NCBI RefSeq assembly: GCF_003261055.1
Contig: NZ_CP030073.1
Span: forward strand, 8,432,001-8,496,000
Length of the DNA stretch: 64,000 bases
Reading direction: 5' to 3'
Source: Streptomyces cadmiisoli
GTDB taxonomy: Bacteria > Actinomycetota > Actinomycetes > Streptomycetales > Streptomycetaceae
Below, piece by piece: positions 58,614 through 64,000 of this stretch (its first letter is position 1; every line of letters starts with the position of its first letter). Below the pieces are notes generated by a model. It made no database searches. It was not told the origin of the DNA and was given only the letters and a program-made list of their open reading frames with translations. Position numbers and translations under genes: made by a program.

Positions 58614-59183
58614 ATGCGCAGCGTGACCTATTCGATGAGCGTCTCACTTGACGGCTACATCGTCGGGCCGGACGGCGGCTTCGATTGGACGGCCCCCGGC
58701 GACGAGGTCTTTCGCTTCTGGATCGACGAAATCAGAGATGTCGGCGTCCATCTGTTGGGACGACGGCTGTACGAAACGATGCTGTACTGGGAGACCGCCG
58801 ACCAGGATTCAACGCTCGACGAATCAGAACTCGAGTGGACCGCGCTCTGGAAACCCCTTCCGAAGGTGGTGTTCTCCACCACCTTGTCGGAGGTGCAGGG
58901 CCATGCCCGTCTGGCCTCCGGCGGGCTGGCGGAGGAGATCGAGCGGCTGCGAGCCGAGCCGGGGGAGGGCGACATCGCGATCGGCGGTGCGACTCTCGCC
59001 GCCGAGGCTGCCGCGTCGGGTCTGATCGACGAGTACCGGGCCATGGTCTATCCGGTGCTGGTCGGTGGTGGCATCCCGTTCTTTCCCCGCCACGAGCGCC
59101 GGGTGGATCTCGAACTCGTCGAGACCCGCACCTTCAACTCGAGAGTCGTCTACCTCCGCCACCGCGTGGCGCGCCAGTCCTAG
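58614..59183 (+). CDS. Dihydrofolate reductase/RibD-C family protein
   Basis: 189 aa from ATG 58614 with GAGGAGG about seven bases upstream. It matches the DHFR-fold RibD C-terminal group: VTYSMSVSLDGYIVGPDGGF, LLGRRLYETMLYWE, GDIAIGGATLAAEAAASGLI and VYPVLVGGGIPFFP. Members reduce pteridines or related substrates with NADPH, and many have no known substrate. It is flanked on both sides by transposase remnants (IS5 to the left, IS701-like to the right), so it may have arrived by transfer. Confidence 0.88.
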   Translation: MRSVTYSMSVSLDGYIVGPDGGFDWTAPGDEVFRFWIDEIRDVGVHLLGRRLYETMLYWETADQDSTLDESELEWTALWKPLPKVVFSTTLSEVQGHARLASGGLAEEIERLRAEPGEGDIAIGGATLAAEAAASGLIDEYRAMVYPVLVGGGIPFFPRHERRVDLELVETRTFNSRVVYLRHRVARQS

Positions 59184-59753: not shown

Positions 59754-59836
59754 CGTCAACCCTGCGTAACGCCGGGACGGTTTGGCCCGGCCGATACCTT
59801 CGCCTGGCCATGACTTGTGGGAGTGACTGGCCAGTG

Positions 59837-60613
59837 ATGGACGTCGAGTTGGGCGAGTTCGCGGGGCAGTGCGCGGTCGTCACCGGCGCGCGAGGGGCGA
59901 TCGGTTCTGCGATCGTGAAACAACTCGCCGTACGGGGCGCGCATGTGGTCGCCGTGGACCGTAGGGAACCGGTGAATCCGGCACCGCCCAGCAGTTGCGG
60001 ACGCATCGTTGAGGTGCGCGGCGATGTGACACGTCCGACCGATGTGCGGCAGGTGCTGAACATTGCCCAGGACCAGGTGGGACCGGTGGGACTGCTGGTC
60101 AACGCGGCAGGGGTGCTCTACGGCGGGCCGGTGGCCAAGGCCCAGCTTGCGGAGTGGGAGCACACGTTTGCGGTGAACGCGACCGGCGTCTTCCTCATGT
60201 CGCAGGCCGCGGCGGCCGGCATGGCCGAGCGAGGCCGGGGCGCGATTGTCACCGTAGCTTCCAACGCATCGGACCTGGCCCGGACCGGCATGGCCGCGTA
60301 CGCGGCTTCCAAAGCGGCTGCGACCGCCTTCACCCGTTGCCTCGGACTGGAGCTGGCCGGGTACGGCGTGCGCTGCAACACGGTCGCCCCCGGCTCCACG
60401 GACACTCCGATGCTGACCGGGCTGTGGGCGGATGCGGAAGATGCGCGCAGGCACTCGGTCGACGGGGTTCTCGCCGAGTTCCGGCCGGGCATCCCGACGG
60501 GTCGGGTGGCCGTGCCTGACGACATCGCGGACGCGGTGGTGTTCCTGCTCTCCGACCGGGCCAGGCACATCACGCTGCAGACCCTGACCGTGGACGGGGG
60601 CGCATCCCTGTGA
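59837..60613 (+). CDS. EntA-like 2,3-dihydro-3-hydroxyanthranilate dehydrogenase (SDR)
   Basis: 258 aa from ATG 59837 (the frame is open from 59810). Short-chain dehydrogenase: TGARGAIGSAIVKQLAVRGA cofactor site, DV in GDVTRPTDV, NAAG in LLVNAAGVLY, Ser in VTVASNASDLAR and YxxxK in AAYAASKAAATAF. The segment NTVAPGSTDTPMLTGLWADA is characteristic of 2,3-dihydro-2,3-dihydroxybenzoate dehydrogenases (EntA/DhbA) and of their 3-hydroxyanthranilate counterparts. Followed by PhzD- and PhzE-like genes, it most likely oxidises DHHA to 3-hydroxyanthranilate with NAD+. Its stop overlaps the next start (GTGA). Confidence 0.88.
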   Translation: MDVELGEFAGQCAVVTGARGAIGSAIVKQLAVRGAHVVAVDRREPVNPAPPSSCGRIVEVRGDVTRPTDVRQVLNIAQDQVGPVGLLVNAAGVLYGGPVAKAQLAEWEHTFAVNATGVFLMSQAAAAGMAERGRGAIVTVASNASDLARTGMAAYAASKAAATAFTRCLGLELAGYGVRCNTVAPGSTDTPMLTGLWADAEDARRHSVDGVLAEFRPGIPTGRVAVPDDIADAVVFLLSDRARHITLQTLTVDGGASL

Positions 60614-61305
60614 CCGGTTCCCTCTCGCAAGAACGTTCCGTCGCGTCGGCGGGAATCCCCGCGATCAGCTCCTACGATCCCAGGCAGGTGTGGGATTCCG
60701 TTCGTCCTTCGACGGGCCCTGCCCGAACCTGGCGGCCGGAGCCGCACCGGACGCTGCTGCTCGTCCATGACATGCAGCGATTCTTCCTCCGGTCCTTCCC
60801 CGCCGACACACAGCCGCTGGACACCCTCCTCGAGCGTGCGGGGCGTCTGCGCGCCGCGGCCGACGGCATTCCCGTCGCATACACCGTTCAGCCGGGGTCG
60901 ATGACCCCACAGCAGCGAGGACTGCTCGCCGACTTCTGGGGCCCGGGTATGCGGGCGGCGGAGGCGGACCGCGCGGTGGTGGCCGAAGTGGCTCCGCGTG
61001 AGGGGGACACGATGCTCACCAAATGGCGTTACAGCGCCTTCCACCACACCGACCTGCTGCGCATGATGCGGGAGCAGGGGCGGGACCAACTGGTCCTGTG
61101 CGGGGTCTACGCGCACATCGGCGTCCTGGCCACCGCCATCGACGCCTTCTCCCATGACATCCAGACCTTCCTCGTCGCCGACGCCGTCGCCGACTTCTCC
61201 GCCGACTGGCACCGTCTCGCCCTCCAGTACGCGGCCGAGCGCTGTGCCGCCGTCGTACGCACCCAGGACGTCCTGGACGCATGGTCGGGGCAGGTCGGCC
61301 GGTGA
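60610..61305 (+). CDS. PhzD-like isochorismatase (ADIC hydrolase)
   Basis: 231 aa from GTG 60610. Isochorismatase fold: catalytic Asp in LLVHDMQRFFLR, Lys in LTKWRYSAF, the CGVYAHIGVLATAIDAFSHD loop in which Gly replaces the Cys of amidase relatives, and TFLVADAVADFSADWHRLAL. The match is closer to PhzD (ADIC to DHHA plus pyruvate) than to EntB: no carrier-protein domain follows and the length is PhzD-like. It overlaps the flanking genes by GTGA on both sides, so the three proteins are made in step. Confidence 0.92.
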   Translation: MTGSLSQERSVASAGIPAISSYDPRQVWDSVRPSTGPARTWRPEPHRTLLLVHDMQRFFLRSFPADTQPLDTLLERAGRLRAAADGIPVAYTVQPGSMTPQQRGLLADFWGPGMRAAEADRAVVAEVAPREGDTMLTKWRYSAFHHTDLLRMMREQGRDQLVLCGVYAHIGVLATAIDAFSHDIQTFLVADAVADFSADWHRLALQYAAERCAAVVRTQDVLDAWSGQVGR

Positions 61306-63360
61306 TCCACGACCAGATCACCGGCAGCGCACCGGCACTGTGGGCCCGTGCGCTGCGCGGCGACCTCACGGACTACGCGGTACTGCACCGCGCAGCGCAC
61401 TCCCCCGGCGACACGGTGGAGGTCCTCACCGGGACAGTGCTCACATGCGCACACCTGGCTGAACTCCCCGTCGACCACAAGGGTCCGGCCCATGCAGACG
61501 GAGGCAGTCACGACCTGCTGGTCCTGGTGCCCTACCGTCAGATCGGTGAGCGAGGATTTGCGTGCCACGACGACGCCGAACCTCTGCGGGTACTGCTGAT
61601 CGAGCAGGCCGCGCGGCTGCCGCTGCACATGGTCACCGGTGCCTGCCCACAGGACGCCGCCCCGCTGCGCGACCTGGCCTTCGACCTGGACGACGACGCC
61701 TACGCCCGGCTGGTCCGCACGGTCATCGAGCAGGACATCGGGCGCGGTGAAGGCGCCAACTTCGTCATGCGCCGGGAGATCCACGCCCGTGTCGCTGCCT
61801 GGGGCCCGTCCGGTGCCCTCGCGGTTCTGGGCAGGCTGCTGCGTGCCGAACGCGGAGCCCACTGGACCTTCGCCATCGGCCTGAACGGGCGCAGCTGGAT
61901 CGGTGCCTCCCCTGAACCGCATGTTCTCCTCGCCGGCGGTGAGGCCGTGATGAACCCGATCAGCGGGACCCTGCGCTATCCGCCGCAAGGCCCGGCGCCC
62001 GACGACGTCCTGCGTTTCCTGGCCGACCACAAAGGAACGCGACGAGCTGTTCATGGTCCTGGACGAGGAACTGAAGACCATGGCCGCCTTGTGCCCGCAG
62101 GGCGGACGGGTCCATGGCCCCTGGCTCAAGGAGATGACCCACCTCGCGCACACCGAGTACTACCTGCGTGGTGCCTGCCCGCTGGACGCTCCTGAGATGC
62201 TGCGGCGCAGCATGTTCGCACCCACCGTCACCGGAAGTCCGCTGCGCAACGCCTGCCGTGTGATCGCGCGTCGGGAGCTATCGGGTCGGGGCTACTACAG
62301 CGGGGTCGCAGCGCTCATGGGCCGGGACCGGCACGGCCGTTCCACGCTGGACTCCACGATCCTCATCCGCACCGCGGACGTCAGCGAGGCAGGGCAGTTG
62401 CGGCTCGGGGTGGGCGCCACCATCGTGCGGGACTCCCAGCCCGAACTCGAGGCCTCCGAGACCCGGACCAAAGCGCGGGGCGTCCTTGAGGCGTTCCGCG
62501 GTCCCGCCCCGTCGAACCCGCCACACCGACCCGTCTCCCATGCCTTCGGCAGTCCGCAGCCCCCACCCGCTCCGGCGCTCGGCAAGCACCCACTGGTGGT
62601 GCGCGCGCTCGCCGACCGCAATCGCCTCCTCGCCCCGTTCTGGCTGACCGGCGCGCCCGCGAGTACCCCCCTCGTCACATCGCCGGTCGCCACCGGCACC
62701 GCGCACGGCACACCACAGGGGACGACGGACGGCACGGCGGACGGCCCGGGGGAGACCGTCACACCGCTGCACGGTCGCCGACTGCTGCTGATCGACGCGG
62801 AAGACGACTTCACCGGCATGCTCGCGCTCCAGCTCCGCTCTTTGGGAATGCACGTCACCCTGCGGCGCTACGACGATGTGGATCCCGCCTTGGCCGACCA
62901 CGACATCGTCATGCTGGGGCCGGGCCCGGGCGATCCGCAGGACCCCGCGGACCGCAAGATCACACGTCTGCACGACCTGGCCCGCTCACTCCTCGAGACC
63001 CGTACCCCCCTGGCCGGCGTATGCCTGGGCCACCAAGTGATCGCCTCCCGTCTGGGGCTGCCCCTTCGCCGTCGTCCCCACCCCGGCCAAGGCAGACGCG
63101 CACGTATCGAACTGCTCGGCCGCAGCGTCGACGTGGGCTTCTACAACTCCTTCTCCGCGATCAGCCACACCGACCGGGTCGACTGCCCCACGACCCGGCT
63201 CACCGTACGGGTCGACCGCGATCCGCACACCGGAGAGGTGCACGCACTCTCCGCGCCGGGGCTGGCCACTGTGCAGTTCCACCCGGAGTCCGTCCTCACC
63301 GCGGACGGCCCCGCGATCCTGACGTCCTGGCTCACCCCGCTGATCACACTCGCCGCCTGA
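61302..63360 (+). CDS. PhzE-like ADIC synthase (TrpE-GATase fusion), one-base frameshift
   Basis: About 685 codons from GTG 61302 if repaired. The N-terminal TrpE-like part includes MNPISGTLRYP, then after the break ELFMVLDEELKTMAALCPQG, HLAHTEYYLRGACP, NACRVIARRELSGRGYYSG and ASETRTKARGVLEAFRG. A spacer (about 62500-62760) leads to a class I glutamine amidotransferase with GPGPGDPQDP, the nucleophile loop LAGVCLGHQVIASRLGL and FHPESVLT (His/Glu). The frame breaks at 62034-62035, where AAAGGAACGC has one G too many; removing it restores HKERDELFMVLDEEL. It would convert chorismate and glutamine to ADIC. As read, only the 298-residue front piece or a piece starting at ATG 62053 can be made. 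Confidence 0.85.
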
Positions 63361-63410
63361 CCGGCGAACACACCGAAACCCAACCCCACACCTCACCCCG
63401 GGAACCGCAC

Positions 63411-64000
63411 ATGCAGACGGCCCCTGCCCAAGAGATCTACGGCGAACGCCTGTTCAGCACCCGCCAGGACACCGAACGAGAACGGCTCGACCTCCTCGCA
63501 CAGACCTGGGACCCTGCCACCACCGCCCACCTGCGCACGCTGCCGCTCGCCGAAGCCCGCAGCATTCTGGAGATCGGCCCCGGCGCCGGCAGCATCGCCG
63601 ACCTGCTCGCCGAAAGCGCCCCCCACGCCGAGGTCACCGCCCTGGACCGCGACACCACCCTGCTGCGCCTGCGCAACCCGCGCGTCCGGCCGCTCCAGGC
63701 CGACATCACCGACGCCGGTCTCGAACTCGGCCCCTTCGACCTCATCCACGCCCGCTGCGTCCTCATGCACCTGCGCGACCACGAAGCCGTCCTCGCCCGG
63801 CTCGTCTCCTGGCTGCGGCCGGGAGGCCACCTCGTCCTCAGCGACACCGCCGAACTCGGCTTCCCCCACTCCTCCAACGCGGATTACCGCGCCACCATGC
63901 AGGCCCTGTCCCAGGTCATCACCACCCATCTGGGAAGCGACCAGAACCACGGGCTCGGACATCCGGCGCGCTTCCGTCAGCACGATCTGACCGACATCTG
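63411..64000 (+). CDS. SAM-dependent methyltransferase, cut by window end
   Basis: At least 196 codons from ATG 63411 (GGGAA upstream); the frame is open at base 64000. Motif I is ARSILEIGPGAGSIADLLAE, motif II EVTALDRDTTLL, then FDLIHARCVLMHLRDHEAVL and SWLRPGGHLVLSDTAELGF. Methyltransferase of the UbiE/Methyltransf_25 type. It follows the PhzE-like gene by 50 bp in the same direction and so belongs to the operon; it may N- or O-methylate the 3-hydroxyanthranilate unit or the final product. Confidence 0.85.
   Translation, partial: MQTAPAQEIYGERLFSTRQDTERERLDLLAQTWDPATTAHLRTLPLAEARSILEIGPGAGSIADLLAESAPHAEVTALDRDTTLLRLRNPRVRPLQADITDAGLELGPFDLIHARCVLMHLRDHEAVLARLVSWLRPGGHLVLSDTAELGFPHSSNADYRATMQALSQVITTHLGSDQNHGLGHPARFRQHDLTDI

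What the first reader, a model, noticed from the sequence alone, without database searches (positions are those of the whole stretch)
59837..64000. Start of a 3-hydroxyanthranilate-based biosynthetic operon
EntA-like dehydrogenase, PhzD-like isochorismatase and PhzE-like ADIC synthase are joined by two GTGA overlaps and followed by a methyltransferase. The set predicts chorismate to ADIC, DHHA and 3-hydroxyanthranilate. The same trio supplies calcimycin and benzoxazoles such as nataxazole and A33853. No PhzF is seen, which argues against phenazines. The product-defining genes lie beyond the right edge, and IS debris to the left marks the cluster boundary.
Basis: partly seen in the sequence, partly recalled or inferred. 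Interest (0 to 1): 0.72.

Follow-up and report, generated by a model that had tools for sequence, protein, structure and literature searches.

The report
Lone 3-hydroxyanthranilate operon with broken synthase
A Streptomyces-like chromosome carries a small four-gene operon that is predicted to turn chorismate into 3-hydroxyanthranilate and likely to methylate it; none of the antibiotic-assembly genes we probed for lie beside it, and in this assembly the gene predicted to make its first intermediate is split by a frameshift, so the pathway would likely have to borrow that intermediate from another cluster or stay silent.

Summary
The three enzymes and both GTGA overlaps are real and look like the known chorismate/DHHA route to 3-hydroxyanthranilate (3-HAA): EntA-like 59837-60613, PhzD-like 60610-61305, PhzE-like 61302-63360. 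Two points of the finding change. First, the PhzE-like gene is split by a frameshift near 62029-62045, in its chorismate-binding domain; an intact 99%-identical protein (P0001) exists in the database. Second, nothing product-defining was found to the right: the operon ends with a methyltransferase (63411-64229), and 99 kb around it held none of the companion genes probed. By contrast 20 of 20 PhzD/PhzE regions from related genomes (13 with an EntA match) carried a DAHP synthase, FAD monooxygenase or PhzF. All three proteins are among the most divergent of those sampled, and the methyltransferase was beside none of the 20. The genome holds two further sets: one intact (7.69 Mb), one whose PhzE has lost its chorismate-binding domain (3.25 Mb). 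So of three EntA/PhzD pairs, one sits with an intact ADIC synthase. Best reading: a divergent, stand-alone 3-HAA module, likely dependent on ADIC made elsewhere, or decaying. Orphan back-up 3-HAA sets are already known from the caboxamycin producer.

The parts
59837..60613 (+). EntA-like short-chain dehydrogenase, predicted DHHA > 3-hydroxyanthranilate (258 aa; an in-frame upstream ATG at 59810 also exists)
   Evidence: Best NCBIfam models are 2,3-dihydro-2,3-dihydroxybenzoate dehydrogenases, 279 and 277 bits, below their cut-offs of 312 and 300; best PDB chains 8sbv and 2fwm of that enzyme.
60610..61305 (+). PhzD-like isochorismatase, predicted ADIC > DHHA (231 aa, GTG start, GTGA overlap)
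   Evidence: Best PDB matches PhzD 1nf9, 1nf8 and 3r77 (249-235 bits), then siderophore-type isochorismatases (193 bits and lower); PF00857.
61302..63360 (+). PhzE-like fused chorismate-binding + glutamine amidotransferase gene, predicted ADIC synthase, split by a frameshift at about 62029-62045
   Evidence: Two-frame match to intact P0001, 97% over the first part and 99% over the second; P0001 matches only PhzE 3r74 in PDB at E<=1e-30.
61302..62195 (+). N-terminal fragment in the first frame
62053..63360 (+). C-terminal fragment in the second frame: rest of the chorismate-binding domain plus a class-I glutamine amidotransferase domain
   Evidence: PF00425 (positions 119-257) and PF00117
63411..64000 (+). 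Class I SAM-dependent methyltransferase, 272 aa, continues to 64229 outside the window

Best explanation
This is a stand-alone four-gene operon that is predicted to make 3-hydroxyanthranilate from chorismate (via ADIC and DHHA) and likely to methylate it or a derivative, but whose predicted ADIC synthase gene is frameshifted in this assembly, so that here it would work only on ADIC supplied by another locus. Shown: gene order, overlaps, frameshift, absence of the probed companion genes in 99 kb, one intact PhzE-like gene next to EntA and PhzD elsewhere in the genome (7.69 Mb), and a third set (3.25 Mb) whose PhzE lacks the chorismate-binding domain. Inferred: the enzyme activities, the substrate of the methyltransferase, co-transcription, sharing of ADIC or 3-HAA between loci, and that the frameshift is biological rather than a sequencing error.
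For: Family and structure-sequence matches of the trio. Frameshift; intact 99% relative P0001. No companion gene in 99 kb, while 20 of 20 PhzD/PhzE regions (13 of them with EntA) had at least one of DAHP synthase (15), FAD monooxygenase at >=59% (10) or PhzF (2). To the right lie PF03601, PF05995 and LysR genes on the other strand. Own genome: three PhzD-like genes in all; PhzE-like genes at 8.49, 7.69 and 6.35 Mb and an amidotransferase-only remnant at 3.25 Mb. In relatives 14 pairs of PhzD and amidotransferase matches listed are 1231-1472 nt apart, against about 100 nt at 3.25 Mb (gaps worked out by hand from a capped list). Precedent: in Streptomyces sp. NTK937 the unlinked set cbx[FGHI]' backs up the caboxamycin set (PMC5481532, passages).
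Against: The frameshift may be a sequencing error; no reads or second assembly of this strain were available. Two fragments could in principle complement each other. The methyltransferase is linked only by position and belongs to a broad family (198 of 394 family genomes have a relative at E<=1e-20), so it may not belong to the pathway. No promoter-like or terminator-like site was found by a consensus scan, so co-transcription is untested. ADIC may not be shared between loci. A relic without function (rival 2) fits the same facts, so the odds of the two overlap.
Confidence: 0.5

Rival explanations
1. The operon is intact and self-sufficient; the frameshift is an assembly or sequencing error, and the operon makes (methylated) 3-HAA as end product or feeds the 3.25 Mb cluster, which lost its own chorismate-binding domain.
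For: P0001, 99% identical and 668 aa, is intact, and its cluster has 7 member sequences; EntA, PhzD and the methyltransferase are open; GC pattern of coding DNA continues on both sides of the frameshift; the 3.25 Mb locus needs an ADIC source.
Against: The assembly is near complete (2 contigs, completeness 100), though that does not exclude indel errors. P0001 lies on a 25 kb contig and differs at other residues, so it probably comes from another strain and does not test this one; its source is printed as '-'.
Confidence: 0.27
2. A decaying relic: the operon was acquired, lost its purpose and is becoming a pseudogene cluster, without any role in this strain.
For: Broken PhzE; lowest or near-lowest mean identity of the sampled sets for all three proteins, which fast evolution could also give; no companion genes.
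Against: EntA, PhzD, the amidotransferase part and the methyltransferase are open with coding GC pattern (third position 0.83-0.86), and PhzE is intact in P0001.
Confidence: 0.22
3. Start of a large benzoxazole, pyrrole-ether or phenazine cluster.
For: The same trio sits inside such clusters (PMC5481532, PMC5958127, passages).
Against: No AMP ligase, KASIII, amidohydrolase or PhzF match in about 60 kb left and 35 kb right; longest stop-free frame 975 codons (gene lists).
Confidence: 0.03
4. A 2,3-dihydroxybenzoate (siderophore) module rather than 3-HAA.
For: The SDR's best family is 2,3-dihydro-2,3-dihydroxybenzoate dehydrogenase; EntA and EntB can substitute in 3-HAA synthesis (PMC5481532, passages).
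Against: The isochorismatase matches PhzD better than siderophore-type proteins (249 against 193 bits and lower); the synthase is a PhzE-type fusion with an amidotransferase; no megasynthase-sized frame nearby.
Confidence: 0.03

Closest known systems
cbx[FGHI]' orphan 3-HAA set of Streptomyces sp. NTK937 (PMC5481532)
   Same: Unlinked PhzE/PhzD/EntA-type genes not ascribed to another pathway; shown there by deletions to back up a benzoxazole cluster.
   Different: The NTK937 set includes a class II DAHP synthase; this one has none nearby, has a methyltransferase and a frameshifted synthase.
Paulomycin Pau18-Pau20 / Plm15-Plm17 (PMC4802897)
   Same: Anthranilate-synthase-like, isochorismatase and dihydroxybenzoate dehydrogenase genes side by side, proposed to give 3-HAA.
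   Different: Embedded with a DAHP synthase, a 3-hydroxybenzoate 6-hydroxylase and sugar genes; no DAHP synthase or such monooxygenase near this operon.
Limazepine Lim4-Lim6 chorismate/DHHA pathway (PMC5958127)
   Same: Same three enzyme families; Lim6 (ADIC) and Lim5 (DHHA) assayed in vitro.
   Different: Part of an NRPS cluster with DAHP synthase. The PhzE-like protein here lies apart from the set sampled; limazepine itself is not in the tree.
PhzD and PhzE of phenazine producers (1nf9, 3r74)
   Same: Best solved-structure matches of the two proteins.
   Different: No PhzF nearby; an EntA-like dehydrogenase instead.

Membership tests
Chorismate/DHHA 3-HAA pathway | PhzD-like protein closer to PhzD than to siderophore isochorismatases | tested here: met
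   249 bits to 1nf9, 193 bits to the best siderophore-type chain
Chorismate/DHHA 3-HAA pathway | EntA-like dehydrogenase next to PhzD | tested here: met
   GTGA overlap read
Chorismate/DHHA 3-HAA pathway | Intact PhzE-type ADIC synthase | tested here: not met
   Frameshift in this assembly; intact in P0001. So it is described as a module of this pathway with a broken first enzyme, not as a complete pathway.
Chorismate/DHHA 3-HAA pathway | Conversion of chorismate to 3-HAA | not testable with these tools
   needs enzyme assay or expression
Phenazine clusters | PhzF isomerase in the cluster | tested here: not met
   PF02567 in the own genome only at 7.28 Mb (full length) and, as partial matches, 6.18 and 3.57 Mb
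Benzoxazole clusters (caboxamycin, nataxazole, A33853) | KASIII-like synthase, AMP ligase, amidohydrolase in the cluster | tested here: not met
   No tblastn match at E<=1e-20 in 99 kb with the own 3.25 Mb genes as probes
Catechol siderophore clusters | Isochorismate synthase and NRPS beside EntA/EntB | tested here: not met
   Synthase is a PhzE-type fusion; no stop-free frame over 975 codons in 99 kb

The most novel reading that the evidence does not exclude
The operon is a separate, deep-branching lineage of the chorismate/DHHA route that evolved as a complete four-gene pathway to a methylated 3-hydroxyanthranilate, and this strain has gone over to one shared ADIC synthase (7.69 Mb) that feeds three EntA/PhzD branches after two of the three local synthases were lost.
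Probability: 0.15. Interest if true: 0.6.

Novelty: new variant of a known kind. Interest (0 to 1): 0.35.

Why it matters
3-HAA is a building block of benzoxazoles, paulomycins, pyrrolobenzodiazepines and others. Reading such a trio as a cluster start would here mislead genome mining. The genome also offers a clean test of whether several 3-HAA branches can live on a single ADIC synthase: three EntA/PhzD pairs, one of them beside an intact synthase.

Tried and rejected
Rejected: large cluster to the right or left; phenazine; siderophore. A 3-HAA dioxygenase (PF06052) as a catabolic outlet gave no match in the own genome, but no control genome rang either, so this shows nothing. Methyltransferase relatives: 198 of 394 family genomes (own included) matched at E<=1e-20, best identity outside the own genome 45%; in another draw of 197 class genomes only the own one passed E<=1e-55. 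None of 19 methyltransferase-homolog loci (L053-L071, about 1.5 kb flanks) held the trio, and none of the 34 loci L018-L051 (about 1.5 kb flanks; up to 10 kb for the last five) held the methyltransferase at E<=1e-15. The fold searches of the methyltransferase named no substrate. The consensus promoter/terminator scan found nothing. Genome-contig scan: 5 loci, 47-49%.

Limits: the probes came from the own 3.25 and 7.69 Mb clusters and from three of the 20 regions, so self-matches are in the counts. The 20 regions were chosen by hand from the 30 loci that laid out, most from the top of its list. The trees are quick searches without bootstrap and warn of long branches. The home-made GC-frame gene caller chose antisense frames over PhzD, the PhzE N-part and the methyltransferase, so its gene lists are rough; labels of genes there and that no family search covered are by eye.
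Full report
The window is G000:C1:8432001-8496000 of a 10.24 Mb genome in two contigs. It is called Streptomyces-like here because four of the five named related loci are titled Streptomyces; the strain itself is unnamed.

Observation. Three + strand genes overlap by GTGA at 60610-60613 and 61302-61305. The first is an SDR whose best NCBIfam models are 2,3-dihydro-2,3-dihydroxybenzoate dehydrogenases, though under their cut-offs (279 of 312 and 277 of 300 bits), which fits a related substrate. The second matches PhzD (1nf9, 249 bits) better than siderophore-type isochorismatases (193 bits or less) along its length. The third is a PhzE-type fusion, but not one open frame: residues 1-231 of the intact relative P0001 align in one frame and 226-668 in another, the change lying at about 62029-62045 inside the chorismate-binding domain. 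Both parts keep the coding GC pattern. P0001 (668 aa, 99% over the C-terminal query, 7 member sequences, on a 25 kb contig, source printed as '-') shows that an intact copy exists, probably in a sibling strain. It matches PhzE 3r74 over both domains. A 272-aa class I methyltransferase begins 50 nt downstream and ends at 64229.

Surroundings. To the right, the opposite strand carries PF03601, a cysteine dioxygenase-type protein and a LysR regulator. Ten proteins of the right flank were given to Pfam: nine matched ordinary families and one none; the rest of the right flank to about 98.9 kb in window coordinates was judged by eye and by the longest frame. In 99 kb (the window plus 35 kb) no match at E<=1e-20 was found to the DAHP synthase, trio-linked FAD monooxygenase, AMP ligase, KASIII, amidohydrolase or PhzF probes; a generic flavin monooxygenase (26%) was the only hit outside the operon. 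In the same of 20 PhzD/PhzE regions from related genomes had at least one of DAHP synthase (15 of 20), the FAD monooxygenase at 59% or more (10 of 20) or PhzF (2 of 20); AMP ligase at 73-74% was in 3 of 20. Thirteen of the 20 have an EntA match and seven do not. The methyltransferase matched in 0 of the 20.

Lineage. In a quick tree of 37 PhzE-like proteins P0001 groups only with P0002 (about 60%, one contig, source ena), apart from the rest, with 100% SH-aLRT support. The tool warns that long branches meet there. Mean identity to the other 36 is lowest for P0002 (50.5%) and P0001 (50.7%), then for the own 7.69 Mb protein (53.7%); the median is 62.5%. PhzD and EntA likewise have the lowest means (55.4% in a set of 27, 52.8% in a set of 16), again closely followed by the own 7.69 Mb proteins (56.8 and 54.7%). 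This may be an old separate lineage or fast evolution; the data do not decide.

Genome context of the pathway. The genome has three PhzD-like genes. The 7.69 Mb locus has open PhzE, EntA and PhzD frames with SRPBCC (label by eye), AMP ligase, acyl-CoA dehydrogenase and UbiA genes. The 3.25 Mb locus has EntA and PhzD among amidohydrolase, KASIII, N-acetyltransferase, AMP ligase and FAD monooxygenase genes. Its PhzE has lost the chorismate-binding domain: about 100 nt separate PhzD from the amidotransferase part, against 1231-1472 nt in the 14 relatives' pairs that I could make from the capped list (gaps worked out by hand). The amidotransferase-only protein P0145 (99%, 5 member sequences) has as its longest contig one of 9,269,371 bases, the length of C1 here. 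A fourth PhzE-like gene at 6.35 Mb has no PhzD and no EntA match within the 40 kb held around it, and groups with genes of other species that have no PhzD within about 5 kb (L050 within 18 kb). So the window's operon and the 3.25 Mb set both lack an intact local ADIC synthase in this assembly.

Mechanism. By homology: the PhzE-type enzyme makes ADIC from chorismate, PhzD-type removes pyruvate to give DHHA, the SDR oxidises DHHA to 3-HAA. The first two steps were assayed for the limazepine homologues Lim6 and Lim5, and the third assigned to Lim4 (PMC5958127, passages). In this assembly the first step is likely lost, so the operon would depend on ADIC from the 7.69 Mb synthase, or on nothing. 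Support by back-up sets is documented: in Streptomyces sp. NTK937, deleting the four cluster genes cut caboxamycin by about two-thirds, and deleting the unlinked set cbx[FGHI]' as well gave a non-producer (PMC5481532, passages). The same paper reports a methyl ester product whose O-methyltransferase lies outside the cluster and is unidentified. An unlinked 3-HAA operon with a methyltransferase is a plausible kind of candidate, but that is inference; the model of the methyltransferase (pLDDT 93.7) matches many methyltransferases and names no substrate.

Verdict. The biochemical reading is supported and ordinary; the cluster-start reading is not. What is unusual is the bare, divergent, four-gene form, the broken synthase, and a genome in which only one of three EntA/PhzD pairs keeps an intact ADIC synthase beside it. 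On rechecking, the confidence of the best explanation was lowered from a draft value of 0.55 to 0.5 and that of the relic rival from 0.25 to 0.22, because the draft odds added up to more than one.

Noticed in passing
L011:11900-13812 (G000:C1 about 3.257-3.259 Mb): Second EntA-PhzD set whose PhzE has lost the chorismate-binding domain, near amidohydrolase, KASIII, N-acetyltransferase, AMP ligase, FAD monooxygenase and (by eye) sugar genes; resembles benzoxazole or paulomycin clusters.
   Followed up: partly
L013:10179-15982 and L014 (G000:C1 about 7.69-7.71 Mb): Intact PhzE, EntA, PhzD set with SRPBCC (by eye), AMP ligase, acyl-CoA dehydrogenase and UbiA prenyltransferase genes; product unknown.
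   Followed up: partly
window 58980-59134: Part of a RibD_C-domain gene matches at 71% two places about 36.8 kb from either end of contig C1 on opposite strands, which suggests long terminal inverted repeats and a nearly complete linear chromosome.
   Followed up: no
P0003: A PhzE relative (48%) is named Pseudomonas aeruginosa by its source on a 5.4 kb contig; possibly a mislabelled or contaminating contig.
   Followed up: no
L009:5429-8067 (64428-67066 in window coordinates, beyond the window): PF03601 (YeiH-like, name recalled) protein, cysteine dioxygenase-type protein and LysR regulator on one strand next to the operon: possibly a sulfur metabolism set.
   Followed up: no
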